Shown: in pieces, positions 12,151 to 35,022 of the stretch
Layout: every line of letters begins with the position of its first letter
Position numbering within the stretch: the first letter of the stretch is position 1
DNA from: an uncultured Eubacteriales bacterium
GTDB taxonomy: Bacteria; Bacillota; Clostridia; Lachnospirales; Lachnospiraceae
DNA length: 64,000 bases
Assembly (NCBI GenBank): GCA_900319795.1
Contig: ONPU01000002.1
Span: 119,681-183,680 of the forward strand
Direction of reading: 5' to 3'
Position numbers and translations under genes: made by a program
The notes under the pieces: generated by a model
The model's database searches: none
Seen by the model: the letters and a program-made list of their open reading frames with translations, nothing else
Told to the model about the DNA's origin: nothing

Positions 12151-13059
12151 TCAGTCCTCCGGCATTTCCTTCAGGTACCGGCGCAAAGCGTCGCGCCAGT
12201 CCGGAAGCGGTTCAAATCCCATTTCACGGATCTTCGAACGGTTCATGCGGCTGTTATAAGGACGTTTTGCCGCGGCGCCGTACTCTTCGGACGTCACGGG
12301 CAGCACCGTCATTTGATTGATACCGGCCTCTTCAAAAATCGCCTTCGCGAAATCAAACCACGAAATATAACTGCCTTCATTGGTGACATGATAGATGCCG
12401 TAGCGGTCCGTCACGATCATATCCACGATCAGGCGTGCCAGATCATAGGTATATGTAGGTGTGCCGACCTGATCATTGACAACCCTGAGGGAATCGTGGG
12501 TTTTGGACAGACGGATCATCGTCCGGATAAAGTTGTTTCCGTTTTTACCGAAGACCCACGCGATCCGAAGGATAAAGAACTTTTTGCAGAACTGCTCTAC
12601 GGCGTCTTCTCCTTCCGCTTTTGTCTGCCCGTATACGCCTAAAGGATGCTTCTCGTCATCCGGCTCCCAGGGCCTTGTGCCGTTTCCGTCGAATACATAA
12701 TCCGTCGAAAAGTACATCATCGGAATGTCTTTTCCCCCGCAATAACGGGCAATCAGCTCCGTGCCGTACGCGTTGACCCTGCGGACCGTCTCCGGAACCT
12801 CTTCCGCCTTGTCGACAGCCGTCCAGGCAGCGCAGTGAATGACGGCATCCGGCGCCGACTCTGCAAGGGTTTTCGCCACCGCTTCCGGATTTGTGATGTC
12901 CAGCGAAACATAGGGCATCTGCGTTACCGCCGATCCGTCCGCTATGCCGCTGTACGACTCCGCCAGATCGCTGCCGATTCCTTCGATCCCTCTTTTTGCA
13001 AGCTCATTCATTACATCGTGACCGAGCTGCCCGCCAACGCCTGTTACAAATATTTTCAT
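12151..13059 (-). CDS. rfbD: dTDP-4-dehydrorhamnose reductase
   Basis: Last step of dTDP-L-rhamnose synthesis, NAD(P)H-dependent reduction of the 4-keto group; cytoplasmic. It has 302 residues, the usual length. The Rossmann start is 'IFVTGVGGQLGHDV'. The SDR catalytic Tyr-Lys is in 'GVYGQTKAEGE', and the 'STDYVFDG' motif is characteristic of RmlD. The start ATG has a strong AAAGGAG. It lies inside the transferase operon, whereas rfbA, rfbC and rfbB sit in two other units of the window. The four-enzyme pathway is thus complete here but dispersed. Confidence 0.95.
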   Translation of the reverse strand: MKIFVTGVGGQLGHDVMNELAKRGIEGIGSDLAESYSGIADGSAVTQMPYVSLDITNPEAVAKTLAESAPDAVIHCAAWTAVDKAEEVPETVRRVNAYGTELIARYCGGKDIPMMYFSTDYVFDGNGTRPWEPDDEKHPLGVYGQTKAEGEDAVEQFCKKFFILRIAWVFGKNGNNFIRTMIRLSKTHDSLRVVNDQVGTPTYTYDLARLIVDMIVTDRYGIYHVTNEGSYISWFDFAKAIFEEAGINQMTVLPVTSEEYGAAAKRPYNSRMNRSKIREMGFEPLPDWRDALRRYLKEMPED

Positions 13060-13078: not shown

Positions 13079-15523
13079 TCAAATGTGCTTCAGGGAAAAG
13101 TCCTGTGTAATCATGCTGAGATTCGGGCTGTAGTAAGGGTCTCCGTCCCTTAGGATTTCCGGCCATCTCTTCCGGAAAAACGTCAGTTCCTTCCCGAAAC
13201 GGCTCTTCTTCTCGGGTGTATTCTCCAGTCCTCTGGATTTCGACTCGTAGTGATAGAGTTCCGCGTAGGGCTCATAGATGATCAGATATCCTTCCTTCCG
13301 GATCTTCATGCACAGATCGATATCGTTAAATGCCACGGCCAGTTCTTCCGTAAAACCTCCGACCCGGTCGAACACTTCCTTCCGGACCATCATGCACGCC
13401 GCCGTAACGGCGCTCATATCCTGCTGGCAGATGATTCTGTGCTGGTATCCGGTCTCCCCTCTCTTCTGGTTGACGAACGCGTGCCCCGCGACACCGCCCC
13501 AGCCGATGATCGCGCCGGCATGCTGGATGGTGTCGTCTCCGTAATAGAGCCTCGCGCCGACGGCGCCGACGTCCGGCCGCATCGCGTATCCCATCATCAG
13601 CGTCATGGCATCCGTGATGAATTCCGTATCGTTATTGAGGAGAAGCAGGTACTCGCCCTTCGCCTCACGGGCGCCGAAATTGTTGATCGCCGAGTAGTTG
13701 AAGGGTCCCTCATAGTGAATCACCCGGATCAGCGGGTCCTCTTCCATCTCACTGTAAGCGGTAAAGGTCGACTCTTCGGTACTGTTGTTCTCAATTACCA
13801 GAATTTCGAAGGACGGCCATTTCACATGCTCCGCCATCGAGTGAAGGCATTTTTTCAGATCGTCGATATGGTCTTTGTTGGGAATGATCACCGACACCAT
13901 CGGCTTCTCCTCCCATTTCCAGATCGTCCGGTAAAGGCCCGGATATTCTCCTTCGCATACTTCCGCCGGCCATCCGAGGCGGTCATAGTGAGCCTGAACG
14001 GCTCGTTTCCCGGCTTCAAACGCCCACGTCTTGCTCTCGGGATCCGCAGCCGTGCTTCCCTCGAAAAATCTCCAGTGATAGAGCACTTTCGGGATATGGG
14101 CGATCCGTTCCGTCCGCTCACTTAAACGAAGGAGCAGATCGTGATCCTGGGCACCGTCATAGGCCGGGTCGAGCCAGCAGGTCCTTCCGTCCCCGTCTGT
14201 AAACCGAACCCCGTCCAGCGTGCTTTTCTTCACAAAGAGCAGATGACAGATATAGTTGACCGAATTGAGGAAATCCGGATCCCAGTCCGGCTTCATATTC
14301 GGCTGGAGCAGCTGGTCGCCGGTCCCGATCTTGTCCTCATCCGTGTAGATTACTTCGGTATCCCCGCGCTCATTGATCAGCTTCACCGCTTCGTAAAGGG
14401 CGCTCTTTACAAGGATGTCGTCATGGTCGGCGAAGGCAATCCAGCTTCCGCCTGCCGCCGCGATTGCCGCGTTGGTATTTTCGGAAATGCCTTTCTGCTC
14501 CTTATGGGAAATGACACGAATCCGTTCGTCCGACTCTTCCAGTTCCTTAAGGATCCCCCGAATCGGGGAATCCGGGCCGCTTCCGTCGCTCAAAATGAGT
14601 TCCCATTTTCCATAGCTCTGTCCCTTAACCGAATTCACGAGCTCGCGGAGATATTTCTCCGGAGTCCTGAAACAGGGAACGACGATGCTGATCAGAGGCG
14701 ACATGGCAAAGTCTTCTTTGCTCTGAAGCGCGAGAACCCGGTCCGACGGCAGATGTTTCTTAATCCAGTCACTGTAGTTGACCCGCCTCATGGCCGGGTT
14801 GAAAAGCTTGTTATAAGTCTTGACCCACAGTGCCTCCGGGCCGTTGTATTTCAGAGCGTCCGCGGCTTTGCCAAGGAGCTGTCCGGCTCTTTTTGCCATA
14901 AAGCCCGTCATGGAAGTGGGATAAGAAAGAATCGTTTCAAACAGTCCCGCGTGAAGACGGACCCGTACGCCGCCTTTCGGAATAGGACGGATTTCAATAT
15001 TGAAGCCGTTGTACTCCTCAACCGGGTATTCGTCGAACAGTTCCACCGTATCGAGACGCTTATAGCGTTCGCATACTCCGTCCAGCCTGTTTCCGGAAGC
15101 TTCGTAGACCCGGATCTCCACCGGTTCTTTCGCTACGGCCCAGCCGGTCAGCCGGAAGAGATTTTCCTTCGGATTCACGGTATAGTCGTCGATAAAATAG
15201 CGGATCGCTCCGCGCTTTTCACGGAGCTCCCTGCCGGAGATCTCAAAGGAGAGTTTTCTTCCGAGGTCACTCTCCGCGTAGATTTTCAAAGAGTTAAGGC
15301 TTTCGATTTCACTGCCGAAGCGAAGAACAGCGGAGGTTTCACAGCCGCCGTAGCGTTCATCGCTGTTGCCGGTCATTACCTCGACGTCCATCGGGAACGG
15401 CTTCCCGTCTACAAAGGCATGGAGAGTCGAATCCGGCCTCAGCCATCCGTTTAAGAGGTATACGGTATCATCATTCATCGAAAACCGGTCGCTTCGTACC
15501 AGAAAACCCGGATTTGTGATCAT
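13079..15523 (-). CDS. Tandem two-domain family 2 glycosyltransferase with N-terminal beta modules (814 aa)
   Basis: A large cytoplasmic transferase. Residues 1-230 form beta-rich modules with a recurring Gly-Trp (for example 'LNGWLRPDS' and 'LTGWAVAKEP'). GT2 domain A (about 270-510) has 'ISIVVPCFRTPEKYL', 'FADHDDILV' and 'GAQDHDLLLRL'. GT2 domain B (about 540-790) has 'VSVIIPNKDHIDDL', 'ENNSTEESTF', 'LLNNDTEF' and 'FNDIDLCMKI'. Both catalytic domains look intact, so two linkages could be made by one protein. Its ATG overlaps the stop of the upstream 733-residue transferase (ATGA), which implies translational coupling and perhaps a complex. It ends with 'GDPYYSPNLS'. The role in the rhamnose-rich backbone is inferred from position. 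Confidence 0.88.
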   Translation of the reverse strand: MITNPGFLVRSDRFSMNDDTVYLLNGWLRPDSTLHAFVDGKPFPMDVEVMTGNSDERYGGCETSAVLRFGSEIESLNSLKIYAESDLGRKLSFEISGRELREKRGAIRYFIDDYTVNPKENLFRLTGWAVAKEPVEIRVYEASGNRLDGVCERYKRLDTVELFDEYPVEEYNGFNIEIRPIPKGGVRVRLHAGLFETILSYPTSMTGFMAKRAGQLLGKAADALKYNGPEALWVKTYNKLFNPAMRRVNYSDWIKKHLPSDRVLALQSKEDFAMSPLISIVVPCFRTPEKYLRELVNSVKGQSYGKWELILSDGSGPDSPIRGILKELEESDERIRVISHKEQKGISENTNAAIAAAGGSWIAFADHDDILVKSALYEAVKLINERGDTEVIYTDEDKIGTGDQLLQPNMKPDWDPDFLNSVNYICHLLFVKKSTLDGVRFTDGDGRTCWLDPAYDGAQDHDLLLRLSERTERIAHIPKVLYHWRFFEGSTAADPESKTWAFEAGKRAVQAHYDRLGWPAEVCEGEYPGLYRTIWKWEEKPMVSVIIPNKDHIDDLKKCLHSMAEHVKWPSFEILVIENNSTEESTFTAYSEMEEDPLIRVIHYEGPFNYSAINNFGAREAKGEYLLLLNNDTEFITDAMTLMMGYAMRPDVGAVGARLYYGDDTIQHAGAIIGWGGVAGHAFVNQKRGETGYQHRIICQQDMSAVTAACMMVRKEVFDRVGGFTEELAVAFNDIDLCMKIRKEGYLIIYEPYAELYHYESKSRGLENTPEKKSRFGKELTFFRKRWPEILRDGDPYYSPNLSMITQDFSLKHI

Positions 15524-17721
15524 ATATACTGTCCTTTCAAAGCATAGTCACTGCGGTTCAGATCCAGATTCGGATTAAAGTAGGGATCTCCCTTTTCGAT
15601 CAGCGCATGCCATTTTTCCCTGAAACCGGTTCTGTCCGCCGGATTCAGAAGGTTTTCAGACCATTCCGTCTGATCCGTATTGAGAATCACTTCCGCCGAA
15701 GGGCAGATCACCGACGCCTGATTTCTCATCATGAGCCGGATACAAAAGTCCGCGTCGAACAGATCCTCCTCATAGCGGGTGTCAAAGCCCCCCAGTTTCT
15801 CAAAGAGTTCCTTCCTCGTCATAAGCGAATCCGAACTCAATGCCGTCACGGTATGAGGCAGATTGGCATAGCCGCCATAGCTGAATACATCCGTGCTCAA
15901 ATCCGCGAACGCCGGAACTGCCGTCCGTTCCCGGCCGCCGGCTCCGATCAGCCAGCCGGCCGAACAGATCCTGCCGTTGGCCGCGCTCACTCTTCCTCCC
16001 GCGGCTCCGACTTCCGCCCTTTGGAAAAAGCCTCCGAGAATCCGGGCAAAGCCGTCTTCGGCCTCTTTCAGGCGGTCTGAAAGAAACAGAAGGTATGTGC
16101 CTTTTGCCTCTTTCGCGGCACGGTTGAGGGCTTCGGGAAGGCTGGCATTTCGCGCGTCCGCCAGTATGACCTCCGCGATTTCCGTCCCTGCATTCTTTCG
16201 GATGAGGGCGGATCGGTCCTCCGCCTTCCTGCCTTTCCCGGGCACCAGAATGACGGAAAGACTGAAGTCGTCCGGAAGTTCGTACCGGACATCGTAACGT
16301 CCGGTATACCGTCCGATCGCGACCTGTCCTTTCAGCCCCTGTCTCTTAAGGTGCGCCGTGAGGGCTCTCCTTCCGTTTTCATAGGCATAGTCCTTGCTGT
16401 CCGAGTTTCCGGCCGTGGACAGCTCGTGCGCCCTCCAGTGATAGAGACTCTTCGGGATATGGACCGCTCTTCCCGCCTTCTCGCTCATCCTGAGAACAAA
16501 ATCGTAATCCTGCGCCCCGTCAAATGCGCCGTCCAGCGCCTGATCCGGCTCCGTAAGGTCTCTTTGGACCGCGACGAGGTGGGTAAAATAGTTATAGCTG
16601 GTCAGAAGAACGGGATCGAAATCCGGTTTGAAGAACGGATCGTAGAGATAGTCCCCGTCCTTGGTCACCTTGTCCTCATCCGAATAGATGAGTTTTATCT
16701 CTTCTTCCTTCTTCCTGTTGAGAACAGACGCCAGTTCAAACAGCGCGTCAGGTGTCAGTATATCGTCATGATCCGCAAATACCAGGAAATCACCCCCGGC
16801 CATCGCGATCGCCGCGTTGGTATTGCCAGCAATCCCCTCGTTGGTGTCCAGCTTCCGGTAGCGGATCCGGGAATCTGTACCGGCAATGCGCTCGATCATT
16901 TCCCGAAGGCCTTCGCCGGAACTTCCGTCCGCAAGACAGAGCTCCCAGTTTGAGTAGGTCTGGGAAAGGACCGATTTCAGCAGGTCATTGAGGAAGCGCC
17001 GAGGAGTGTTGAAAAGCGGCACGACAATGCTGAAAACGGGCGCATAATCAAAGACAGTCTCCCGCTGCTTCTGAAGTTCGTCTTCCTGAATCCTTTTTGC
17101 ATAAGCCCAGTCATCATACGCGATCAACGGGCCGTCCGAAGGAGCCTTCTTCTCCGCAAGCGCTTTTTCCCATGCGGCAATCCGCTTTTCCCTGTCCGGT
17201 TCGATCTGAAGCGGAATCCGGGAAATGCCGGAGGCGCTCTCCGCTTCCAGGGTATACGGGAGTGGCCGGGAGGTGAAGATTTCATTTTCAAAATGAATCA
17301 CAAAGCCGCACTTGCGCTCTTTTGAAAGAGAAAGCGTACTGTTGACGTCCGCCCGTATGGATCTTGTAATGAGGGACGGAACGATCGAACCATCCGCGGC
17401 ACGTATACGCAGATATTCGGAAGACGCGTCCGGATCCGCCGCCCATCCGCGGATTTCGGTCTTTTCTTCCTGATAAATGTATTCTCCGATCCAGACCCGG
17501 ATCCGCTCCTGGGGCTTTAATTCCCTGCGAACCGAATCAAAAGGATCCCCTTTTCCCATCCTCACACTGGCAGCCCGGTAGAGCTTCGCGAATTTCATTT
17601 CCCGGATCTCTTCCACCATATGAAGCCGCGCTTCATAGACCTCTTCAAGAGCGTCCTTTGCAGCGAGGGCCTTGCGAAGTTCCGCGATCTCATTTTGAAG
17701 CTGTACGATCTTCTCTTCCAT
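15520..17721 (-). CDS. Family 2 glycosyltransferase with coiled coil and degenerate second domain (733 aa)
   Basis: Layout: N-terminal coiled coil (about 1-45, heptads of Glu/Lys/Leu), a beta module with 'IRGWAADPD' (about 80-175), GT2 domain A (about 230-470) and a second GT2-like domain (about 500-720). Domain A has 'FSIVVPLFNTPRRFL', 'FADHDDILTPDAL' and 'GAQDYDFVLRM' and looks active. In the second domain the nucleotide-binding strand reads 'LSVILVPGKGRKAE' and the usual 'LNND' is replaced by 'LLFLSDRLKE', so the acidic pair is lost. The frame is open throughout and the family tail 'GDPYFNPNLDLNR' is kept, so this is not a recent frameshift. The second domain may be a structural or acceptor-binding relic. 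The coiled coil could tether it to partners. Confidence 0.85.
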   Translation of the reverse strand: MEEKIVQLQNEIAELRKALAAKDALEEVYEARLHMVEEIREMKFAKLYRAASVRMGKGDPFDSVRRELKPQERIRVWIGEYIYQEEKTEIRGWAADPDASSEYLRIRAADGSIVPSLITRSIRADVNSTLSLSKERKCGFVIHFENEIFTSRPLPYTLEAESASGISRIPLQIEPDREKRIAAWEKALAEKKAPSDGPLIAYDDWAYAKRIQEDELQKQRETVFDYAPVFSIVVPLFNTPRRFLNDLLKSVLSQTYSNWELCLADGSSGEGLREMIERIAGTDSRIRYRKLDTNEGIAGNTNAAIAMAGGDFLVFADHDDILTPDALFELASVLNRKKEEEIKLIYSDEDKVTKDGDYLYDPFFKPDFDPVLLTSYNYFTHLVAVQRDLTEPDQALDGAFDGAQDYDFVLRMSEKAGRAVHIPKSLYHWRAHELSTAGNSDSKDYAYENGRRALTAHLKRQGLKGQVAIGRYTGRYDVRYELPDDFSLSVILVPGKGRKAEDRSALIRKNAGTEIAEVILADARNASLPEALNRAAKEAKGTYLLFLSDRLKEAEDGFARILGGFFQRAEVGAAGGRVSAANGRICSAGWLIGAGGRERTAVPAFADLSTDVFSYGGYANLPHTVTALSSDSLMTRKELFEKLGGFDTRYEEDLFDADFCIRLMMRNQASVICPSAEVILNTDQTEWSENLLNPADRTGFREKWHALIEKGDPYFNPNLDLNRSDYALKGQYI

Positions 17722-17793: not shown

Positions 17794-20700
17794 TCACCGA
17801 AGCGAAAAATCCGGTCTTTCCAGCGCCAGCGCGGGATGATAGTACGGATCTCCCTCCTTAAGAAGCTTTTCCCAGCGGTTCATGAATATCTGTTTTTCAC
17901 GCTCAAAGCGGGCCTTTTTCTCAGGGCTGTCCTCATAGCCTCTCGACTTTGATTCATAGTGATAGAATTCGGCCGCCGGCTGGAAAAGCACCCGGTATCC
18001 CAGGTTCCTCAACTTCAGGCACAGATCGATGTCATTGAGAGAAATCTTCAGTTCCGCCGTGAACCCGCCCGCCGCAAAGAACAGTTCCTTCGGTACTAAA
18101 AGGCAGGCAGCCGTTACGGCCGAAAGATCCATCTCGCACACCGCGCGTTTCATATAGCCTTCGTAAGCGCGGTCGGCGCCGCTCATGCAGTGTCCCGCAA
18201 AGCCGCCGTACCCGATAATGACACCCGCGTGCTGAATGGTGTTGTCCCCGAAATAGAGCTTCGCTCCGACTGCGCCGATCTCCGGACGCATCGCGCTTTC
18301 CATCATGACGCGCACAGCGCCGTCCGAAATGACTTCCGTGTCATTGTTCAGGAAGAGAATGTACTCTCCATCGGAGCTGCGAACGCCGAAATTGTTGATC
18401 GCGGCATAGTCGAATTCCCCTTCGTAGGTGACACATTTCACACGGGAATCCGCCTCCTGAAGTTCCTTATAAAGCCGGAACGTCTCTTCCTCTTTGCTGT
18501 TGTTTTCGACGATCAGGATCTCAAGATGGTCCCAGCCGCCGCGCTCCCGCAGCGAGTTTACGCATTTCCGGAGGTCCTCCCGGTGATCCATATTCGGTAT
18601 GACAACCGTCAGAAGCGGCTCTTCCTTTGCCTGATAGCGCCGTTTCAAAACCCCGTATACCGCATCCGCGGTCACGTCCGCCGAAATTTCATTTTTTTGA
18701 AAATGGTCTCTCAGCGCGTCCGCGCAACGATCAAGAGTCCGTTCGAACGACTCTTTTTCGGTCATGCTCGCAAGAACCTGCGGCAAATGGCCGATGTTTT
18801 GGATCTCAGCCGACGCCGTGAGAAGAAATGCGTACACCTCCGGCTCATCCGCAAATGAGACCTTCTCGTACCCCATCTCACGGAGACGGTCCTTTTTGAC
18901 CGCAAAAGCCCCTCCGATATAGTCGTAGCTCATCAGATAATCGGGATCTGAGTCCGGCTTAAAACGGGGTTTTGTCCGGACGCCGCTGCCGGACAGAAGA
19001 TCGTCGTCGCAATAGATCAGTTCGCACTCCGGATGTTCTGCGGCAAAGTGCGAAAACGCGTCGTAGGCACTCGGATCAAAGACAAGGCCGGGCATTTCCG
19101 CGAACACCCACTCCTTTTCGAAAGCGTCCATCTCCGCGTCCGTAGCTTCCTGAAGCAGACGGCTGCCGAGGTAGTTCCTGTATGCTTCATCCGGAATCGG
19201 ATCATTTCCGGTCCGGGCAAGCTGTGCCCGCTTTTCGGGATCCGTCTCGATCCGGACCGCATTTCTCACATAGCCTCTCAGAGAGCGCGCTTCAAGAAGC
19301 AGGTTTCCGTCGCCCGCTTCCATCACGGGAATCTCTGTCCAAAACCCATAGTAAACGGAGGGATCCAGGTCAAAAGCGGCTGCCACATCCGGCCTTGCCG
19401 CTCTTTTGAACGCACACGGAACCTTCGTTCCGTCCGCTCTCAAAAGCGTCAAAGAACAGTTTCCGAAAGTGCGGTCAAAGCACCAGCCGCGAAGCCGTAC
19501 CCTGTCCATTCCCGTGACCTGCTCATCGACTGTCAGGCAGATTCCGGAAGGATCGGAAGGAAGCTGCGGATCAAAATTGCGGAAAGGGTCTTCCCTGCCG
19601 GCAAGAGAGGCGAGCTTCCGCATCGCTTTTTCAGAACGCATGCCCCGGATCTCACCCGCGAGAGCTTTCAGATGAACGATGAGCGCGTCCCTGCCCTCGA
19701 TCTCACGCTCCATAAACCGGAGTTTCGTCTCCCCGGCTTCCTTTCCCGCCTTCAGGATTTCCGGCGGACAGTTTTCGGGAAGAAGAGCCCGCAGTTGGGC
19801 CGTAAAGCGCTTTGCTCCTGAGGGAACCGGGATTTCGATCGCCGGATCCTCTGTTGTAAAGAAGAAGCCGGATGCCCCGATCCTTACGCCGTTCGACCGG
19901 AACTCTCCCATGTCCGCCGCTTCCTCGTCAAATTTCAACTGATTGATTTCCGCATAGCACGGACACTCCAGAGGATCCAGCCGGATCTTTTGGATCCCGC
20001 TGACCGGAAGCGAGAAAAAGATCTCCCCGTTCTCCGATACTTTGGTCATCGTCCGTTCGTCTTCACTGTATCCGTTTCCGCTGTCCGTATATACGGAAGC
20101 CAGATGCGCGCCTTCATAGGCCGCCGTCAGGCGTCCGATATCGATCGTACCGTCCGAAATGGCTCCGTACAGATCTCTTCTCGGAACATAGCCGCCTTTG
20201 ACATATTCCTGAAAATGTCTCTCCATCTCTTCATAAACAGCCTCGTCCCCGGACGAAATGCCGAAATGTTCCATGATTTCAGCGCCCGGCAGGCTGAGCC
20301 GCGCGGAATTGCCGCGGAGATAGTAGTGGAGAACGCGCCATTTTACAAATGAAACAGGTACGGGAAAGGAAAAGGTCCACTCATAGTCGATCACATGAAG
20401 GAGACCGTCCTTCATGACGATATTGTTGAGCACCAGATCGATATCCGAAACCGAAAAAGCGGGAACACCGGATCCGTTCGCGATGCCGGTCTCTCCGAAG
20501 ACCCTGCGGAAGTCGTCCGTAAGGACAAAGTCCGTGTCCGAGAGGGCATCGAGTCTGTCCAGATACTCCCGGAGGCGCACTTCGACGTCCTTAGGACCTT
20601 TTTTCAAAACCTCATCGCAGTATTCTTCGTAAGTCTTTCCTTCGAGGTATTCAAAAGAGACCGCGCCGTCCTTCGGATCACAGCGGTTGACCCGGAAATC

Positions 20701-20880
20701 GCTGTTCGCGAATAATACCGCCAGCTCATTCGCATGGGCGGCAATTCCCGCGACATGCCCCTCAGCTTCCGGATACTGAGGCATTTTCAATACGGTCCGC
20801 ACCCCGTTTTCTTCGCGGATTTCCGTGCGGATTGAAAGAGAGCGCCTGCGTTCGTTTGAATATTTGGCATACAGGATCAT
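17794..20880 (-). CDS. Kinase-like domain fused to family 2 glycosyltransferase (1028 aa)
   Basis: The N-terminal 240 residues resemble a small-molecule/LPS kinase: 'VRTVLKMP' (Lys32), a hinge-like 'FEYLEGKTYEEY', a catalytic loop 'SDIDLVLNNIV' (Asp148 and Asn153 spaced as in HxDxxxxN) and a metal site 'VIDYEW' (Asp165). A beta region follows, then a coiled coil (about 385-430) and a 'RLRGWCFD' beta module. Next comes a GT2-like domain lacking its nucleotide-binding half (only 'IYCDDDLLS' and 'KPRFKPDSDP' remain), and finally an intact GT2 domain (about 765-1010; 'LTVVIPNMDHREDL', 'LNNDTEVIS', 'LNDIDLCLKL'). It starts 6 bases after the methyltransferase stop, with GAGAGG upstream. Kinase, methyltransferase and coiled coil together recall the chain terminator WbdD. 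The kinase reading is by motif only. Confidence 0.75.
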   Translation of the reverse strand: MILYAKYSNERRRSLSIRTEIREENGVRTVLKMPQYPEAEGHVAGIAAHANELAVLFANSDFRVNRCDPKDGAVSFEYLEGKTYEEYCDEVLKKGPKDVEVRLREYLDRLDALSDTDFVLTDDFRRVFGETGIANGSGVPAFSVSDIDLVLNNIVMKDGLLHVIDYEWTFSFPVPVSFVKWRVLHYYLRGNSARLSLPGAEIMEHFGISSGDEAVYEEMERHFQEYVKGGYVPRRDLYGAISDGTIDIGRLTAAYEGAHLASVYTDSGNGYSEDERTMTKVSENGEIFFSLPVSGIQKIRLDPLECPCYAEINQLKFDEEAADMGEFRSNGVRIGASGFFFTTEDPAIEIPVPSGAKRFTAQLRALLPENCPPEILKAGKEAGETKLRFMEREIEGRDALIVHLKALAGEIRGMRSEKAMRKLASLAGREDPFRNFDPQLPSDPSGICLTVDEQVTGMDRVRLRGWCFDRTFGNCSLTLLRADGTKVPCAFKRAARPDVAAAFDLDPSVYYGFWTEIPVMEAGDGNLLLEARSLRGYVRNAVRIETDPEKRAQLARTGNDPIPDEAYRNYLGSRLLQEATDAEMDAFEKEWVFAEMPGLVFDPSAYDAFSHFAAEHPECELIYCDDDLLSGSGVRTKPRFKPDSDPDYLMSYDYIGGAFAVKKDRLREMGYEKVSFADEPEVYAFLLTASAEIQNIGHLPQVLASMTEKESFERTLDRCADALRDHFQKNEISADVTADAVYGVLKRRYQAKEEPLLTVVIPNMDHREDLRKCVNSLRERGGWDHLEILIVENNSKEEETFRLYKELQEADSRVKCVTYEGEFDYAAINNFGVRSSDGEYILFLNNDTEVISDGAVRVMMESAMRPEIGAVGAKLYFGDNTIQHAGVIIGYGGFAGHCMSGADRAYEGYMKRAVCEMDLSAVTAACLLVPKELFFAAGGFTAELKISLNDIDLCLKLRNLGYRVLFQPAAEFYHYESKSRGYEDSPEKKARFEREKQIFMNRWEKLLKEGDPYYHPALALERPDFSLR

Positions 20881-20886
20881 TCTCGC

Positions 20887-21804
20887 TTACCTCTCAAGTT
20901 CGATAAAATAGGAATTGGAAAACAGTGGGAAGAGTCCCGCTTTGATGATCGAATCCAATGCCCGCGCCTCGTCAAACAGCATCATGCGGGAACGGTCAAA
21001 ATTTTCCAGATTCTGACGCAGTTCTCCTGTTTTCGGAAGATACTCATCCGAATAGATGCTCATGGGGAATTTGTAGTCCGGATAGGGATAAAAGAAACGG
21101 AAACGGTCAAATCCTGCCTCCCGGAACAGCTCCTCCAGTTCGGGCCTTACAAATGTCCGCGCATAGGTATTCTCGCCGTATCCTTCGATCCCGTCGAACC
21201 AGCGTCCCGTGTGGTCTTCCCTGCACCCCGCGAAATACTTGATGCCGAGACGGTTTTCGATCGCGATCAGAAGCTTCCCGCCTTTCTTAAGATGTCTGCC
21301 GACAATCCTGAGGAATTCCGTGTACGGCTCCTCCGAGGCGATATAGCTGTTCGCGTATTCAAAAACCCCGATCAGCGTGATGATATCATAGTCCCGGTCC
21401 AGCTTCTTCTCGACGTCCTGAAAATTGCCGAGACGGATCTCAAGCCCCTTGGCATCGCGATGCCGGTAGGCATTGACAAGGGAGCGTTTTCTGGAGAGGT
21501 CCACGCAGGTCACCGAAGCTGTCCTGCCAAGCACGGCACCGGTCACGGCCCCGCAGCCCGACCCGATCTCAAGCACTTTTTCGTGTCCTTCAAACGGATA
21601 CCAGCTCAGGATATTTTCCCTCAGTCTTGAAAAATGATACATCACGGGCCAGCTTTTCCTGGCCGCGATCTCCCGGTCAAAACCGGACGGTTCCGTATTC
21701 ATCGCGATTTCGAGAAGCTCATCCTCGACCGCGCCGTCGGAATACAGATCCGTACCCGGATAGTCGTCCGTATTGATTTTTACATTTCCGATCGTCTCTG
21801 CCAT
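20887..21804 (-). CDS. Class I SAM-dependent methyltransferase, possible glycan-capping enzyme
   Basis: A 305-residue methyltransferase. The SAM-binding core is 'KVLEIGSGCGAVTGAV' (about residue 75), followed by 'VTCVDLSRKRS' (acidic end of strand 2), 'YDIITLIGVFEY' (motif IV) and 'LKKGGKLLIAIEN' (motif V). The C-terminal part is rich in Phe, Tyr and Arg and may hold the acceptor site. The start at 21804 was preferred over the upstream in-frame Met at 21879, because GAGGGG lies eight bases before it and the longer form would overlap the oppF stop. It is almost contiguous with the kinase-glycosyltransferase gene. In view of Wzt with a C-terminal domain in the same window, methylation of a phosphorylated chain end is an attractive but unproven role. 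Confidence 0.82.
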   Translation of the reverse strand: MAETIGNVKINTDDYPGTDLYSDGAVEDELLEIAMNTEPSGFDREIAARKSWPVMYHFSRLRENILSWYPFEGHEKVLEIGSGCGAVTGAVLGRTASVTCVDLSRKRSLVNAYRHRDAKGLEIRLGNFQDVEKKLDRDYDIITLIGVFEYANSYIASEEPYTEFLRIVGRHLKKGGKLLIAIENRLGIKYFAGCREDHTGRWFDGIEGYGENTYARTFVRPELEELFREAGFDRFRFFYPYPDYKFPMSIYSDEYLPKTGELRQNLENFDRSRMMLFDEARALDSIIKAGLFPLFSNSYFIELER

Positions 21805-21857: not shown

Positions 21858-22826
21858 TTAGTAAAGCGGATGAAAACATGCGACGGAATGGCCGTCCCGT
21901 TCCGTCAGCGCCGGTTTTTCACTCCGGCATCTCTCATCGGCATAAGGACAGCGCGTCTGGAAGCAGCATCCTTCAGGCAGATGAACGGGGCTCGGGACTT
22001 CGCCCTTGATCAGCTTCTTTTCCCTTGTCCTTCGATGAGGATCCGCCTGCGGAATCGCGTCCAGAAGAAACTCCGTATAGGGATGCCTCGGACGGGAATA
22101 CAGTTCGTCCTTCGGGGCAACCTCGCAGATGGTTCCGAGGAACATCACACAGACCCTGTCCGCAATAAAATGGATGACCGACAGGTCATGCCCGATGAAA
22201 ATACTGGTCAGCCGCATCTCTTTCCTCAGCCGCTTCAGAAGATTCAGAATCTGACTTTGGACCGAAACGTCCAGTGCCGAAACCGGTTCATCGCAGATGA
22301 GGATGTCCGGATCCAGAGCGATCGCTCTCGCGATTCCGATTCTCTGTCTCTGACCTCCGGAGAACTGGTGCGGATACCGTGTCAGGAACTCTCCCGGCAG
22401 CCCGACTTTCTCCATCAGCCCAAGCACTTTGTCGTTCGTCTCCGCAGCTGTCCCGGTGACATGCCAGGTCACAAGCGGTTCTGCGATCAGGTCCCTCACG
22501 TTCATGCGCGGATCCAAAGAGGCATAGGGATCCTGAAACACCATCTGCATTTTCCTTCTTAGCGGACGAAACTCCTTCTCCTTCATCGCGGTGATGTCCT
22601 GACCGTTAAGCAGGACTTTTCCGGAAGTCGCCGGCAGAAGGCGGATCAGCGTTCTGCCAAGCGTGCTTTTCCCGCAGCCGGATTCGCCGACAACCGCAAG
22701 GGTTTCGCCTTTATAGAGGGTCAGGTCCGCCTCATTTAAGGCATGCACAATCTGCTTTTTTTTCGTCAGGAAATGTTTCGTCAGCTTTTCAGCGCGCAGG
22801 ATCACTTCCGTCCGGTTTTCGTTCAT
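21858..22826 (-). CDS. oppF: Oligopeptide ABC transporter ATPase
   Basis: ATP-binding subunit (322 residues) of a peptide importer, on the inner face of the membrane. Walker A is 'GESGCGKSTLGR', the signature 'FSGGQRQRIGIARA' and Walker B 'ILICDEPVSALD'. The C-terminal cysteine cluster 'CCFQTRCPYADERC' is the iron-sulfur-type motif common in OppD/F and DppD/F. The start at 22826 has a strong GAGGGGGT; the longer in-frame extension to 22934 would overlap oppD and lacks such a site. It is the last gene of the transporter set and is followed after 53 bases by the methyltransferase gene with no terminator seen. Confidence 0.93.
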   Translation of the reverse strand: MNENRTEVILRAEKLTKHFLTKKKQIVHALNEADLTLYKGETLAVVGESGCGKSTLGRTLIRLLPATSGKVLLNGQDITAMKEKEFRPLRRKMQMVFQDPYASLDPRMNVRDLIAEPLVTWHVTGTAAETNDKVLGLMEKVGLPGEFLTRYPHQFSGGQRQRIGIARAIALDPDILICDEPVSALDVSVQSQILNLLKRLRKEMRLTSIFIGHDLSVIHFIADRVCVMFLGTICEVAPKDELYSRPRHPYTEFLLDAIPQADPHRRTREKKLIKGEVPSPVHLPEGCCFQTRCPYADERCRSEKPALTERDGHSVACFHPLY

Positions 22827-22836
22827 TTCTACCCCC

Positions 22837-23814
22837 TCATTGACGTTCCGAAAGGAAACAGCTGCACAGATGTCCCTCTTCCACCGGATACAGGCCCGGC
22901 TGTTCTTCCGAGCATCGGCCGAACGCCTTCTCACAGCGGGGATGGAACGCGCATCCCGACGGCAGGCGCTTCAGATTCGGGACGACACCGCTGATCGTGT
23001 GCAGATATTCCGGGTTGTCATAAAGGCCCGGGATCGAGGCAAGAAGCCCCTGTGTGTACGGATGAGCGGTATTGTCGAACAGAGAAAACACTGATGCCTT
23101 CTCTACAATCCTTCCGGCATACATCACGTATACTTCATCGCAGATTTCCGCCACGACTCCCATATTGTGCGTAATGATCAGAACACTCATACCCTGCTCT
23201 TCGCAGAGCTGTTTCATCAGTCTTAAGATCTGTGCCTCCACCGTCACGTCCAGAGCCGTAGTCGGTTCGTCGGCGATCAGAAGTTTCGGATTTCTGATCA
23301 TCGCCATCGCGATCATGACGCGCTGCCGAAGACCGCCCGACAGCTCATGAGGATAAGCGGAATACCTCTCCTCCGGCTCCGGGATCCCGACCTTCTGAAA
23401 CATTTCCACCACCATTTTTCTGGCTTCCGCATGAGAGGAAATGCCTCCGTGTATACGCAGCGCTTCCTCCACCTGTCTTCCGACGCGGATCACGGGATTC
23501 AGCGACGTCATCGGTTCCTGAAAGATCATGGAGACTTCGTCTCCGCAGAGCTTCCGGAGTTCTTTTTCCGGAAGGCCCACGAGTTCTTTTCCGTCGAGGA
23601 GAATGGAGCCGCTTTCGATCCGTCCGGGGTTTCTTACAAGTCCCATCACGGATTTGGCGGTCATGCTCTTTCCGCATCCCGATTCTCCCACAAGGCCCGT
23701 TATCTTTCCCCGGGGCACGTTCAGGCTCACGCCGTTTACAGCCTTTACCACGCCGGAATCCGTGAAGAAAGACGTATGGAGATCCTTTATTTCCAGTATA
23801 TTCGGACTGTCCAT
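22837..23814 (-). CDS. oppD: Oligopeptide ABC transporter ATPase
   Basis: Partner ATPase of OppF, 325 residues. Walker A is 'GESGCGKSMTAKSV', the signature 'LSGGLRQRVMIAMA', Walker B 'LLIADEPTTALD' and the switch His is in 'ITHNMG'. The C-terminal 'GCAFHPRCEKAFGRC' is the cysteine motif of this subfamily. It lies 9 bases after oppC and 10 before oppF. A peptide substrate is assumed from the subfamily; metal chelates or other solutes cannot be excluded, since NikD/E look alike. Confidence 0.93.
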   Translation of the reverse strand: MDSPNILEIKDLHTSFFTDSGVVKAVNGVSLNVPRGKITGLVGESGCGKSMTAKSVMGLVRNPGRIESGSILLDGKELVGLPEKELRKLCGDEVSMIFQEPMTSLNPVIRVGRQVEEALRIHGGISSHAEARKMVVEMFQKVGIPEPEERYSAYPHELSGGLRQRVMIAMAMIRNPKLLIADEPTTALDVTVEAQILRLMKQLCEEQGMSVLIITHNMGVVAEICDEVYVMYAGRIVEKASVFSLFDNTAHPYTQGLLASIPGLYDNPEYLHTISGVVPNLKRLPSGCAFHPRCEKAFGRCSEEQPGLYPVEEGHLCSCFLSERQ

Positions 23815-23823
23815 CTTCCGTTC

Positions 23824-25693: not shown

Positions 25694-25704
25694 ATAGCAA
25701 TCTC

Positions 25705-27471: not shown

Positions 27472-27561
27472 TCACTTTTCTCCATATTGCATGTTAGTTT
27501 TAAAAAACAGCTGAAAAATGACAGCCAAAGGTCATATACAAAAGATGTACATAACTTACTA

Positions 27562-27590
27562 ATTTTACCATACTATAAAGTCCGCGTCAA
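27562..27590 (-). promoter_or_regulatory. Sigma-A promoter of the opp-polysaccharide operon
   Basis: Minus strand TTGACG (27585-27590), a 17-base spacer and TAAAAT (27562-27567), followed by a leader of about 85 bases to oppA. Both boxes and the spacing are close to consensus, in an AT-rich gap after larB. Confidence 0.65.
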
Positions 27591-27597
27591 AAACCTC

Positions 27598-28347: not shown

Positions 28348-28395
28348 ATTGCTCCCTTATAGAATGATTCTTTCTGACAAAAAGTACGAATAGAC

Positions 28396-30221: not shown

Positions 30222-30231
30222 TTCCATTACA

Positions 30232-31288: not shown

Positions 31289-32572
31289 TTAATATTCGAC
31301 GGTAACCTCCGAGTTCATGTCATAGAACCCGACCGTATTCTTAACAGATACAACAGTCACATTGAGGATGTCATAAAGCCTCTGGAACACGCGGAACTCC
31401 CCTTCGTGATACCCGGTGCAGCCAAAGCTCAGCAGATACTCCCCGCCCTGCAGATCCATCTTCTGCCGGAAGCGGACGACGACATCCTGCCCGGCCTTCA
31501 TGCTTCCGATATCATGGCCCTCAAAAAGAGTATTGGTCCCGCAGATCTCCGTTCCCTTCAGATCCTTGAACGTGAACGCGCAGATCGGATCCTCGACATC
31601 CCTGTGAAAATGGATGCGCGCCTGAATCGTGAAATACGCGCCTTTTTCCACGCTGTTCGTGATCGTTCCCTTTTCGTCAAAGGTCGTAATCTTTGTAAAT
31701 GTAGCCTGATGCTCCCCGTATTCGAGCATATTCGGATTCATCGGGAGGATGCCGGTCAGCGAATTGCTGCCTTCCTGTTTCGCCGCTATTTCCGCGACAG
31801 TAGGCTCAGACTCCTCTTCCGCTGTATCACTGTCACCGTAATCCACAAGCAGTTTTTTGTAGAGATCGACAATCTGTTTCGGCTCGCCCTCTGCCATTTT
31901 GACGCCCTTGTTGAGAAGGACGACCCGGTCGCAGTATTTTGAGACCGAACTTAAGTCATGGCTGACGAAGAGAATCGTCTTTCCGGCTTTCCGGAACTCT
32001 TCGAACTTGTGATAGCATTTTGACTGGAAGAAGACGTCGCCGACCGAAAGAGCCTCATCCACGATCAGGATTTCCGGATCGATATTGATCGAAAGCGCGA
32101 AAGCCAGACGGACGAACATGCCGCTCGAATAGGTTTTGACCGGCTGGTTGACGAAATCCCCGATATCCGCGAAGCTTAAGATGTCATCCAGTTTCGCGTC
32201 GATTTCCTCTTTGGAAAAGCCCATCATCGTCCCGTTCAGATAGATGTTCTCGATCCCGGTGTATTCCATATTGAACCCGGCTCCGAGTTCCAGAAGCGCC
32301 GAGATGCGGCCGTTGGCCGTCACTGTCCCCGATGTGGGAGCAAGAACGCCGGTGATGATTTTTAAAATGGTCGATTTGCCGGATCCGTTCGTTCCGATGA
32401 TACCGACAGTCTCCCCCTTGTTCACTTCGAAGCTCACGTCGTTGAGAGCCCGAAGTTCCTTATATTTCTTCTTCCGGGAGAGCCCGAGGGCCTCCTTCAG
32501 ACGGTCCGACGGTTTGTCGTAGAGTTTATAGATTTTCGTAAGGTGGTCAATACGAATGACCGGATTTTCCAT
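31289..32572 (-). CDS. wzt: Polysaccharide ABC transporter ATPase with C-terminal glycan-binding domain
   Basis: ATPase of the glycan exporter, 427 residues. The N-terminal ATPase has Walker A 'GTNGSGKSTILK', signature 'YSSGMFVRLAFALS' and Walker B 'ILIVDEALSVGD', as in Wzt and TagH. The C-terminal part (about 270-427) is a beta-sandwich of the Wzt_C type, starting near 'GEHQATFTKITTFDEKG' and containing 'GTEICGTNTLF'. In Gram-negative systems this domain recognises the capped chain end. The start at 32572 (MENPVIR) was chosen for its GGGAGG six bases upstream; the longer frame begins at 32599. It is cotranscribed with wzm. Confidence 0.93.
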   Translation of the reverse strand: MENPVIRIDHLTKIYKLYDKPSDRLKEALGLSRKKKYKELRALNDVSFEVNKGETVGIIGTNGSGKSTILKIITGVLAPTSGTVTANGRISALLELGAGFNMEYTGIENIYLNGTMMGFSKEEIDAKLDDILSFADIGDFVNQPVKTYSSGMFVRLAFALSINIDPEILIVDEALSVGDVFFQSKCYHKFEEFRKAGKTILFVSHDLSSVSKYCDRVVLLNKGVKMAEGEPKQIVDLYKKLLVDYGDSDTAEEESEPTVAEIAAKQEGSNSLTGILPMNPNMLEYGEHQATFTKITTFDEKGTITNSVEKGAYFTIQARIHFHRDVEDPICAFTFKDLKGTEICGTNTLFEGHDIGSMKAGQDVVVRFRQKMDLQGGEYLLSFGCTGYHEGEFRVFQRLYDILNVTVVSVKNTVGFYDMNSEVTVEY

Positions 32573-32588
32573 ACAGTGCCTCCCTTCC

Positions 32589-33386
32589 TTATAGGACATC
32601 CGCGAAATGAATGCGGAGGCGCCTGTAGATCATATTTCCAAGAACAAATACCACAATCGCCCAGAACCAGAAATACAGCGTTTCCGTACCGCGCTCGAAA
32701 AACCATCTCCGGCCGTAGATCGCGTCCCGGTAGCCGGTTACGATGTAGTACATCGGGTTGATCTTAAAGAGCCAGCCGATATTCTCAAAGCTTCTGATAT
32801 CAAACATGATCGGCACGGACCAGACTCCGAACTGAAGGCCGATCCCGACGATCTGGGACATATCCCTGAAGAAAATCACAATGGCGCTTGTCGCGTAGAC
32901 CAGCCCGAGAAGGAACACGAGCATGCCGAAATAGTAATAGACAATCTGGATCAGATAGATATTCGGATAGTATCCGTAGATTGCCGCGATGACCAGTGCC
33001 ACCAGAATAAAGAACAGGTGTGAAAAGAGCGCGGAAAAAGCCTTCACGAACGGAAGCACCCTGATGTTGAACACGAGCTTTTTCACAAGGTAGCTGTATT
33101 CGAGGAACGTGTTCGTCCCGGCGCTCATGACTTCCTGACAGTAGAACCAGGGCACGATGCCGCATACGAGATAGACCAGGAACGGCACATCGAGCGATTT
33201 CCCGGACTTCAGGCCGTGGCCGAAAACCAGCCAGTAAATAAGGACGGTGACAACCGGCTGTACAAAAGCCCAGATGACACCGAGATAAGACCCGGCATAG
33301 CGGGTCTTAAAATCGTTCTTGGCCAGTTTCCAGATCAGGCGTCTGTTTTTGATAATCTGATAAGGCAGGGTATTTTCCAACGTCAT
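32589..33386 (-). CDS. wzm: Polysaccharide ABC-2 type permease
   Basis: Membrane component of the glycan exporter, 265 residues with six membrane segments, of the ABC2_membrane/TagG type. The N-terminal amphipathic 'RRLIWKLAKNDFKTRYAGS' and the following 'LGVIWAFVQPVVTVLIYW' are typical. Its ATG overlaps the rfbC stop (ATGA), so exporter and rhamnose synthesis are translationally coupled. It works with Wzt to move a completed undecaprenyl-linked polymer outward. Confidence 0.93.
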   Translation of the reverse strand: MTLENTLPYQIIKNRRLIWKLAKNDFKTRYAGSYLGVIWAFVQPVVTVLIYWLVFGHGLKSGKSLDVPFLVYLVCGIVPWFYCQEVMSAGTNTFLEYSYLVKKLVFNIRVLPFVKAFSALFSHLFFILVALVIAAIYGYYPNIYLIQIVYYYFGMLVFLLGLVYATSAIVIFFRDMSQIVGIGLQFGVWSVPIMFDIRSFENIGWLFKINPMYYIVTGYRDAIYGRRWFFERGTETLYFWFWAIVVFVLGNMIYRRLRIHFADVL

Positions 33387-33946
33387 TTGGCTTCTGCTTT
33401 CCTGTACTTAGCAAGGCTGCCCCATTTCTCATCCTTTGCTGAAAGATTGAGCGGCGTGTCCGGATCAAGTGGCCATTCGATGCCGATGTCCGGGTCATTC
33501 CAGATGAGGCCGCCCTCATCGTTCGGATGGTAGAAGTCCGAACATTTGTAGCAGAATTCCGCGACATCCGAGAGCACATAAAAGCCATGGGCAAAATTCT
33601 TCGGAATGAACAGCTGTTTCTTGTTCTCTTCAGACAGGACCGCGCCGAACCACTTCCCGAATGTCGGGGAGCCTTCTCTCAGGTCCACTGCCACGTCGAA
33701 CACGGCTCCGCGGACGACTCTCACCAGTTTGTCCTGGGGATAATTGATCTGGAAATGGAGTCCCCGGAGGACGCCTTTTGTCGAAGAGGACTGATTGTCC
33801 TGGACAAAGCGCACGTCGATTCCGGCATTTCGGAAGTCCTCTTCCTGATATGTCTCCATGAAGTATCCGCGGGCATCCCCGAATACCTGGGGCGTAATGA
33901 CTTTCACGCCTTCAATGTCGCATGTTTCTACCGTAATTTTTCCCAT
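33383..33946 (-). CDS. rfbC: dTDP-4-dehydrorhamnose 3,5-epimerase
   Basis: Cupin-fold epimerase of dTDP-rhamnose synthesis, 187 residues, the normal length. Seen: 'FVQDNQSSSTKGVLRGLHFQ' with the catalytic His, 'KLVRVVRGAVFDVAVDLR', 'FIPKNFAHGFYVLSD' and 'WNDPDIGIEWPL'. The 110 bases between rfbA and rfbC contain an imperfect hairpin (about 33998-34021) with no T-run, so I do not call it a terminator. Confidence 0.96.
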   Translation of the reverse strand: MGKITVETCDIEGVKVITPQVFGDARGYFMETYQEEDFRNAGIDVRFVQDNQSSSTKGVLRGLHFQINYPQDKLVRVVRGAVFDVAVDLREGSPTFGKWFGAVLSEENKKQLFIPKNFAHGFYVLSDVAEFCYKCSDFYHPNDEGGLIWNDPDIGIEWPLDPDTPLNLSAKDEKWGSLAKYRKAEAK

Positions 33947-34056
33947 AATCTGCTTTCACTTTCCTTATGTCTTTTGATAGCCCCACCAGTAGCACACGCT
34001 GAGATCATTGTGATCTTCAGCTATACTTCCAGCGTTGCATAATAAATAATTTAAAC

Positions 34057-34926
34057 TTACAGACCCTCGGCGATCTCCATGAGATACTGGCCGTACGCGG
34101 TTTTAAGCAGCGGCTGCGCAAGCTTCTCCAGCTGCTCCCTGTCGATGAAACCGCGCTTGTAAGCAATCTCCTCAATGCAGGAAATATAGAGCCCCTGCCT
34201 CTTCTGGAATGCCGACACGAAATCCGCCGCGTCAAGCAGCATGTCGTGATTGCCGGTATCGAGCCACGCAAAGCCCCTGCCCAGCGTCTCGACATACAGA
34301 TCCCCGCGATCCAGGTACGCGTTGTTGACGCTCGTGATTTCAAGCTCACCTCTTGCGGACGGTTTGACGGCGGCCGCGATGTCAACCACGTCATTGTCAT
34401 AGAAATACAGTCCCGGAACGGCGTACTTGGATTTCGGGTTCTCCGGCTTTTCTTCGATCGAAATCGCCTTGCCGTTGGCGTCGAACTCGACTACGCCGTA
34501 TTCACGCGGATCTTTGACATAATAGCCGAAAATCGTGGCCCCCTTTTCCCTGGCAGCCGCTCTCTTCAACACCTCGCTGAAGCTCTGTCCGTAGAAAATG
34601 TTGTCTCCGAGCACGAGCGCCACGTTGTCATTTCCGATAAATTCACGGCCGATGATAAATGCGTCAGCCAGCCCGCGGGGCTTATCCTGTATCGCGTAGG
34701 AGAAACTCATTCCGAGCTGGGAACCGTCACCGAACAGTTCCTCAAAGACGGGCAGATCCCGGGGAGTCGAGATAATCAGAACTTCCCTGATGCCTGCCAG
34801 CATCAGCGTCGACAGAGGATAGTAGATCATCGGCTTGTCATAGACCGGCATGATCTGCTTGCTGACCGCCTTTGTCAGCGGATAAAGCCTGGTCCCGGAT
34901 CCTCCGGCGAGAATAATTCCCTTCAT
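34057..34926 (-). CDS. rfbA: Glucose-1-phosphate thymidylyltransferase
   Basis: First step of dTDP-rhamnose synthesis, making dTDP-glucose from dTTP and glucose-1-phosphate. It has 290 residues. '[18 protein letters not shown]' is the nucleotide-binding start, '[11 protein letters not shown]' holds the metal-binding Asp and '[10 protein letters not shown]' the sugar site. The start at 34926 has AGGAGGG; the frame extends to 34995, but that extension covers the promoter. It heads the unit rfbA-rfbC-wzm-wzt and possibly the metal transporter. Confidence 0.96.
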
Positions 34927-34960
34927 GTGAAGCCCTCCTGTATTTCCTGATATTCCAAAG

Positions 34961-34990
34961 ATTATAACATGAACCTTCTTTTCTTGTAAA
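34961..34990 (-). promoter_or_regulatory. Sigma-A promoter of rfbA
   Basis: Minus strand TTTACA (34985-34990), an 18-base spacer and a perfect TATAAT (34961-34966), placed so that transcription begins about 30 bases before the rfbA start. Confidence 0.6.
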
Positions 34991-35022
34991 ACCATGCCGA
35001 CGGGAGATCTTTTACAGATCCG

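What the first reader, a model, noticed from the sequence alone, without database searches (positions are those of the whole stretch)
17794..21804. Possible Gram-positive counterpart of the WbdD chain terminator: methyltransferase next to a kinase-glycosyltransferase fusion
A SAM methyltransferase is followed after 6 bases by a protein whose first 240 residues carry kinase-like motifs (Lys32, Asp148 with Asn153, Asp165), then a coiled coil and GT2 domains. In E. coli O9a, WbdD joins a methyltransferase, a kinase and a coiled coil; it caps the chain with methyl phosphate, sets length, and the cap is read by the Wzt C-terminal domain. Here the same functions would be split and re-fused to a polymerase-like GT2, and Wzt of this window has the C-terminal domain. 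What is seen: the motifs and gene order. What is inferred: capping.
Basis: partly seen in the sequence, partly recalled or inferred. Interest (0 to 1): 0.8.

Follow-up and report, generated by a model that had tools for sequence, protein, structure and literature searches.

The report
Gram-positive methyltransferase–kinase glycan-cap module
Near a sugar-chain exporter, this bacterium carries a methyltransferase and a kinase that probably work as a pair to cap growing surface sugar chains with methyl phosphate, a mechanism shown so far in Gram-negative bacteria and apparently common in this Gram-positive family.

Summary
The core observation holds: an MT gene and, 6 bases on, a 1028-aa protein whose residues 1-250 are an APH-type kinase (K32, D148, N153, D165 invariant in relatives; AF2 pLDDT 94). 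Corrections: a beta-domain follows the kinase, the first GT2 module is truncated, and a coiled coil is not supported in this copy. The pairing is not chance: all 80 MT homologues kept carry the kinase (60 fused, 20 adjacent), 79 beside a Wzt with C-terminal domain; in 299 genomes of the family all 111 with a strong MT match have the kinase, and kinase and Wzt_C coincide in 149 (91 expected). The fused MT-kinase model's four best PDB hits are WbdD, so the analogy holds in architecture. But the kinase is not WbdD-like: the closest characterised protein is Klebsiella O7 ORF6 (2024), an MT–kinase–CBM–coil–GT2–GT2 terminator that puts methyl phosphate on terminal rhamnose; a Pseudomonas relative matches its published MT residues number for number. 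Best reading: a Gram-positive branch of O7-type methyl-phosphate terminators, split into two genes here. Capping is inferred, not shown. New variant of a known kind.

The parts
20887..21804 (-). SAM-dependent methyltransferase, 305 aa (ORF open to 21879; start taken at the conserved Met)
   Evidence: Pfam Methyltransf_23 1.7e-10; family alignment A2, 27 sequences; Y21, Y56, G81, G83, D102, Y150 align with Y28, Y66, G91, G93, E112, Y158 of the Pseudomonas relative, the residues named for Klebsiella O7 ORF6
20131..20880 (-). Kinase domain, residues 1-250 of the 1028-aa protein; K32, D148, N153, D165
   Evidence: invariant in aligned relatives; AF2 pLDDT 94; Foldseek APH/Mph/PRPK/LicA
19783..20109 (-). 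Beta-rich domain, residues about 258-366, at the place of the Ig-like CBM reported for O7 ORF6
   Evidence: nine strands in the AF2 model; position compared with PMC11231755 section 11; fold not searched separately
19591..19728 (-). Linker, residues about 385-430; coiled coil not supported in this copy
   Evidence: helix begins at 373 in the model, which ends at 385; heptad scans
18769..19044 (-). Truncated first GT2 module, residues 613-704: DxD half only, Rossmann half missing
   Evidence: phmmer of the halves of the GT2 modules of the 814-aa protein against the fusions
17866..18624 (-). Intact second GT2 module, residues about 753-1005
   Evidence: Pfam Glycos_transf_2 3.8e-15
31289..32599 (-). 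Wzt: ABC ATPase with C-terminal carbohydrate-binding domain (PF14524), presumed reader of the cap
   Evidence: Pfam 4e-39; the only Wzt_C match in the genome, which is 82% complete
32589..33386 (-). Wzm, ABC exporter permease (name from recall)
   Evidence: ORF; homologues next to Wzt in relatives
15520..17721 (-). GT2 protein, 733 aa, two GT2 modules, the second weak
13079..15523 (-). GT2 protein, 814 aa, two GT2 modules; presumed polymerase component
12151..13059 (-). RmlD, dTDP-rhamnose synthesis (name from recall)
   Evidence: ORF; homologues in the loci of many relatives
33383..34995 (-). RmlC (33383-33946) and RmlA (34057-34995) (names from recall)
   Evidence: ORFs; homologues in 67 and 58 of 80 named loci

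Best explanation
The two genes encode a split methyltransferase-kinase chain terminator of the Klebsiella O7 ORF6 type, working in an ABC-transporter (Wzm/Wzt) pathway for a rhamnose-containing surface glycan. The kinase domain would phosphorylate the non-reducing terminal sugar of the lipid-linked chain, the partner MT would methylate that phosphate, elongation would stop, and the C-terminal domain of Wzt would recognise the capped end and admit the chain for export. The beta-domain would hold the glycan, and the attached GT2 would keep terminator and polymerase together. Shown: predicted kinase fold with an intact catalytic set, obligate pairing with the MT, repeated fusion and fission of the pair, operon context with Wzt_C in relatives, homology and architecture shared with proteobacterial relatives. 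Inferred: substrate, methyl phosphate, Wzt recognition, length control.
For: Catalytic K/D/N/D invariant; kinase fold; fused MT-kinase model ranks WbdD 1-4 among 350,542 chains; 80 of 80 MT homologues kept have the kinase, 60 fused and 20 adjacent, 79 of 80 with Wzt_C on the same strand, 73 of them within 300 bases of the MT; 29 of 29 congener loci with the MT fused to (7) or directly upstream of (22) the kinase and Wzt_C on the same strand; 111 of 111 genomes with a strong MT match have the kinase; kinase and Wzt_C together in 149 of 299 against 91 expected; fused/split state changes at least 12 times on the MT tree, 6 forced by supported branches; Pseudomonas relative of 1457 aa after ABC permease and ATPase genes, with O7 ORF6 residues at identical numbers; ORF6-O7 shown in vitro to phosphorylate and methylate terminal rhamnose, D441A dead (PMC11231755 section 11).
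Against: No biochemistry here. The ORF6-O7 sequence was not held, so the link runs through the Pseudomonas relative and published residue numbers; the kinase profile scores that relative only weakly (8.6 bits with A1; 42.9 bits with A3, which includes the beta-domain). A Gram-positive phosphate cap already known (C. difficile Ox247) was reported as cyclic phosphate, not methyl phosphate (PMC6254364, passages). Two relatives have a degenerate kinase site (Citrobacter L171, Bacillota L191). 44 of 155 kinase genomes have no MT at E <= 1e-40, perhaps divergent ones; not followed up. Two extra kinase copies have no MT beside them. 27 of 176 Wzt_C genomes lack the kinase and 6 of 155 kinase genomes lack Wzt_C. 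No coiled-coil ruler is evident in the window. Wzt is not adjacent in this genome, and the attached first GT2 is truncated.
Confidence: 0.73

Rival explanations
1. The kinase caps the chain with phosphate, but the MT acts elsewhere (O-methyl on the sugar) or the phosphate is cyclised, giving a cap other than methyl phosphate.
For: C. difficile Ox247 S-layer glycan ends in 2,3-cyclophosphoryl-rhamnose in an ABC-transporter locus (PMC6254364, passages); Geobacillus WsaE makes a 2-O-methyl rhamnose cap (PMC2943079, passages).
Against: Strict MT-kinase coupling with repeated fusion fits successive steps on one site, and the O7 protein was shown to methylate the phosphate.
Confidence: 0.12
2. The pair makes a side-chain decoration such as phosphocholine or methylated phosphoethanolamine rather than a terminal cap (LicA-like kinase plus phosphobase methyltransferase).
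For: LicA appears among fold hits of the kinase (4r7b), and phosphoethanolamine methyltransferases among hits of the fused model.
Against: Those are superfamily-wide hits; the module sits with a Wzt carrying the cap-reading domain in 79 of 80 loci. LicC/LicD-like genes were not searched for.
Confidence: 0.07
3. The kinase domain is catalytically dead here and serves only as a binding module; the MT alone caps by O-methylation, as in E. coli O8.
For: Two distant relatives (Citrobacter L171, Bacillota L191) have lost the metal-binding Asp, and O8 shows that an MT-only terminator suffices (PMC3482155, passage).
Against: In the window and the relatives aligned, D148, N153 and D165 are invariant, 78 of 78 and 28 of 28.
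Confidence: 0.04
4. It is a true WbdD orthologue rearranged.
For: WbdD chains are the four best Foldseek hits of the fused model.
Against: TM-scores only 0.19-0.29 and rmsd 14-17 A, so the domains are packed differently; the window kinase model ranks APH, Mph and PRPK first with no WbdD in the 50 rows shown of 1929; no WbdD in the rows shown of the PDB profile searches (9 of 9, 60 of 202, 8 of 8).
Confidence: 0.03

Closest known systems
Klebsiella pneumoniae O7 ORF6 methyltransferase-kinase terminator (PMC11231755, 2024)
   Same: Domain order MT, unannotated APH-like kinase, Ig-like domain, coil, two GT2 modules; wzm/wzt and rml genes in the cluster; SAM-site residues and catalytic Asp correspond; four congeners have MT, kinase and both GT2 modules in one 1457-1477-aa protein (L035, L037, L039, L051).
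   Different: Gram-positive host; MT and kinase are two genes in the window; first GT2 truncated; no coil found.
WbdD of E. coli O9a / Klebsiella O3
   Same: MT followed by kinase in an ABC-transporter pathway, cap read by Wzt (PMC3482155, passages); best PDB matches of the fused model.
   Different: Different kinase family and domain packing; WbdD carries no GT2, and its coil is a ruler.
Lcin_0519 kinase-MTase family (Legionella survey, PMC9758233)
   Same: Kinase-MTase with frequent coil; Wzt, Wzm and GT neighbours in a share of genomes (section 9).
   Different: No experiment; the taxa named there are Gram-negative; sequence not compared here.
WsaE of Geobacillus stearothermophilus (PMC2943079)
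   Same: Gram-positive rhamnan, Wzm/Wzt export, MT fused to two rhamnosyltransferases, methyl cap (passages).
   Different: Three active domains described, none a kinase; cap is 2-O-methyl. Sequence not compared here.
C. difficile Ox247 S-layer glycan (PMC6254364)
   Same: Gram-positive rhamnose/ribose glycan with terminal phosphate on rhamnose and an ABC exporter (passages).
   Different: Cyclic phosphate; 'kinase' and 'methyltransferase' each occur 0 times in the paper's main text.

Membership tests
Klebsiella O7 ORF6-type terminators | MT with SAM residues Y28, Y66, G91, G93, E112, Y158 | tested here: met
   Window Y21, Y56, G81, G83, D102 (Asp for Glu), Y150, through the Pseudomonas relative that has all six at identical numbers
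Klebsiella O7 ORF6-type terminators | APH-like kinase after the MT with catalytic Asp | tested here: met
   D148 aligns with D443 of the Pseudomonas relative (ORF6 has D441), invariant in 78 of 78; APH-family fold hits
Klebsiella O7 ORF6-type terminators | Ig-like CBM after the kinase | tested here: inconclusive
   Beta-rich domain at the right place; its fold was not searched on its own
Klebsiella O7 ORF6-type terminators | Coiled coil before the GT modules or at the C-terminus | tested here: inconclusive
   Crude heptad scans do not support one in the window, but do at this place in 5 congeners
Klebsiella O7 ORF6-type terminators | Two C-terminal GT2 modules (not universal: some orthologues end after the coil) | tested here: not met
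   One intact, the first lacks its Rossmann half; since orthologues without GT modules are accepted in the paper, this does not exclude membership
Klebsiella O7 ORF6-type terminators | wzm/wzt in the same cluster | tested here: met
   Window 31289-33386, 9.5 kb from the MT; Wzt_C in 79 of 80 related loci
Klebsiella O7 ORF6-type terminators | Phosphorylation and methylation of terminal rhamnose | not testable with these tools
   needs enzyme assay or glycan NMR
WbdD (O9a/O3) | Eukaryotic-type kinase packed against the MT as in WbdD | tested here: not met
   APH-like kinase, WbdD absent from the 50 rows shown; fused model aligns over 490-513 columns but at rmsd 14-17 A
WbdD (O9a/O3) | MT phosphate pocket R31, C33, N34, Q35, R36, F194, D195, H197 | not tested
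   WbdD sequence not held; residues read in PMC3482155
APH/protein-kinase-like superfamily | N-lobe Lys, catalytic Asp, Asn at +5, metal Asp | tested here: met
   K32, D148, N153, D165

The most novel reading that the evidence does not exclude
Half of the sampled genera of the window's family (Lachnospiraceae, inferred) end Wzm/Wzt-exported rhamnose glycans with methyl phosphate made by an O7-type MT-kinase pair, so that a chain-length and export checkpoint known from Gram-negative O antigens also operates on the surface of a major Gram-positive gut family, with the pair repeatedly fused, split and joined to polymerase modules.
Probability: 0.6. Interest if true: 0.75.

Novelty: new variant of a known kind. 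Interest (0 to 1): 0.63.

Why it matters
[quoted passage not shown] A family-wide MT–kinase pair next to a cap-reading Wzt domain gives a concrete hypothesis with clear mutants and a measurable end group, in a family whose rhamnose-rich polysaccharides are described as immune stimuli (PMC12413058, passages). It also gives a likely function to domains for which Pfam names only generic methyltransferases and no kinase above cut-off.

Tried and rejected
Pfam and NCBIfam name no kinase in residues 1-250; phmmer of the whole fusion against the PDB found only GT2-type and weak matches. Profile searches of the PDB gave JAK-type protein kinase matches at 1.5e-4 with the MT-kinase profile, but 0.24 or worse with the kinase profiles, so I rest on the fold result. 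The second look by VIA-align (pdb_via) was not available. tblastn of plasmids with a fused MT-kinase found only 2 records, MT part only; the kinase part of the Citrobacter protein is degenerate and not significant. My regular expression was one residue short and returned nothing; the Bacillota relatives L187-L192 were judged by eye from the printed sequence: D–N–D pattern intact in L187, L188, L189, L190, L192, lost in L191; L193 and L194 have an adjacent separate kinase by profile. Literature searches for a Gram-positive or Lachnospiraceae methyl-phosphate terminator (open-access PMC only) showed none among the rows listed, which does not show that none exists.

A1 used 26 of the 29 congener loci (not L034, L038, L058), with two kinase copies from L033; A3 used 77 of 80 named loci (not L120, L128, L136); A4 used 54 of 56 listed fused proteins (not L080, L120); the tree dropped L061 and L062 as duplicates of congener loci, and had 104 inner branches of which 37 were supported. 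Two extra kinase copies (L033, L034; 371 aa) have no MT next to them. The map hides some overlapping ORFs (for example the Wzt of L039 and the fusion of L051); the counts used are those. The same-contig check (30 of 30) covers 30 of the 149 genomes with both, taken from the top rows, not a random draw. Genomes in the co-occurrence table are related, so its p-value overstates independence.
Full report
What is there. On the minus strand, the MT (20887-21804) and a 1028-aa protein (17794-20880) are 6 bases apart. The MT matches several Pfam methyltransferase families; the large protein matches only GT2 families, at residues 757-979. Wzt (31289-32599) has the C-terminal domain PF14524 (4e-39), the only such match in this 82%-complete genome. 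GT2 genes and, by recall of their sequences, rml genes flank the pair.

The N-terminal domain is a kinase. The 247-residue query found matches in 36 of 61 genomes: 35 of 37 of the genus (own included) and 1 of 24 others of the order. K32, H42, D148, N153 and D165 are invariant in 28 of 28. In a second set of 78 sequences, 21-38% identical to the window, D148, N153, D165, E167 and W168 are invariant and K32 is present in 77, with one gap. AF2 gives mean pLDDT 94 for residues 1-385. Foldseek ranks macrolide and aminoglycoside phosphotransferases, PRPK, homoserine kinase and LicA, from E 2.7e-7. A beta-rich domain follows at about 258-366.

The pair is a unit. Selection was by MT similarity only. 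In 29 congener loci the kinase has the MT fused (7) or directly upstream (22, gap at most 285 bases), with Wzt_C on the same strand in all 29, within 300 bases in 20 and at about 3.5 kb in 9. In a sample of 299 genomes of the window's family (298 genera) the kinase is in 155, PF14524 in 176, both in 149 against 91 expected (Fisher p 5.8e-48; genomes are related, so p overstates independence); 6 have the kinase only, 27 Wzt_C only, 117 neither. The MT at E <= 1e-40 is in 111, all with the kinase; 44 kinase genomes lack an MT at that threshold. On an MT tree of 107 rows (quick method) the fused/split label needs at least 12 changes, 6 forced by supported branches. So the order MT-kinase is kept while the gene boundary comes and goes.

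What it resembles. The model of a fused relative (L088, 686 aa, pLDDT 91) has as its four best matches among 350,542 PDB chains four WbdD entries (E 1.1e-12 to 8.1e-11). They align over 490-513 columns, which must span both domains, but with TM-scores of 0.19-0.29 and rmsd 14-17 A. The bifunctional architecture is WbdD-like; packing and kinase are not. The paper on Klebsiella O7 (PMC11231755; passages, part 1 of section 11) describes ORF6: MT, an unannotated 223-aa domain closest to the kinase AmiN, an Ig-like CBM, a coiled coil and two GT2 modules. It phosphorylates and methylates terminal rhamnose in vitro, and D441A abolishes this. The paper names orthologues in alpha- and gammaproteobacteria and cyanobacteria; 'gram-positive' has 0 occurrences in its main text. 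ORF6 itself was not held, but tblastn found a Pseudomonas asturiensis plasmid protein of 1457 aa directly after ABC permease and ATPase genes. It has Y28, Y66, G91, G93, E112 and Y158 at exactly the numbers given for ORF6, plus D443/N448/D461, aligned with window D148/N153/D165. Four congener loci have MT-kinase-GT2-GT2 in one protein of 1457-1477 aa (L035, L037, L039, L051). Elsewhere in the phylum the module is rare: 12 of 398 sampled genomes at E <= 1e-30, 8 of them outside the window's family; of these 8, 7 keep an intact kinase motif or an adjacent kinase and one, L191, does not (six of them judged by eye).

Peculiarities of the window copy. The first GT2 module has lost its Rossmann half, while 25 of 28 other kinase fusions over 950 aa (all 16 congeners among them) keep both modules; of the other three, L140 also lacks that half and L082 and L086 match no GT2. 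An oligopeptide-type ABC transporter, an AIRC-domain protein and CbiM/Q/O genes lie between Wzt and the MT; the largest Wzt-MT distance in the 108 other loci measured (two of them duplicates) is 5.1 kb. A coiled coil is not supported.

Mechanism. Phosphorylate the terminal sugar, methylate the phosphate, stop elongation, license export by Wzt_C. The first two steps rest on ORF6-O7 and WbdD; the last on WbdD/Wzt work (PMC3482155, abstract and passages). For Gram-positive bacteria a 2-O-methyl cap (WsaE; PMC2943079, passages) and a terminal cyclic phosphate on rhamnose (C. difficile Ox247; PMC6254364, passages) are known, so a phosphate cap as such is not new there; an MT–kinase enzyme pair for it, as far as my searches reach, is.

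Verdict. A real, conserved, obligate MT–kinase module in Wzm/Wzt loci; most likely the Gram-positive branch of O7-type methyl-phosphate terminators. Function inferred. 

Noticed in passing
window 21858-31275 (minus): Oligopeptide-type ABC transporter (2 ATPases, 2 permeases, SBP_bac_5), an AIRC-domain protein (LarB-like by recall) and CbiM/Q/O cobalt-type uptake genes sit between Wzt and the MT gene; in 29 of 29 congener loci Wzt and MT are at most 3.7 kb apart. Insertion island, or a MAG assembly join.
   Followed up: partly
window 18769-19044: Loss of the Rossmann half of the first GT2 module in the kinase-GT fusion with the frame kept, while 25 of 28 other kinase fusions keep both modules.
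   Followed up: yes
L033:3897-5012 and L034:3901-5016: Second, stand-alone kinase copies (371 aa, about 25-27% identical) upstream of Wzm, without an MT of their own; in L033 the copy follows two large ORFs of 633 and 570 aa, and L057 has similar-looking ORFs of 624 and 563 aa between Wzt and MT.
   Followed up: no
L171:7944-9893 and L191: Relatives whose kinase domain has lost the metal-binding Asp; possibly methyl-only terminators, as E. coli O8 is to O9a.
   Followed up: no
window 15520-17721: The second GT2 module of the 733-aa protein scores only 51 bits against the GT2b query, with 277 for the 598-aa protein, so it may be degenerate.
   Followed up: no
L082 and L086: Kinase fused to over 1100 further residues that match none of the GT2 queries (1406 and 1419 aa); partner domain not identified.
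   Followed up: no
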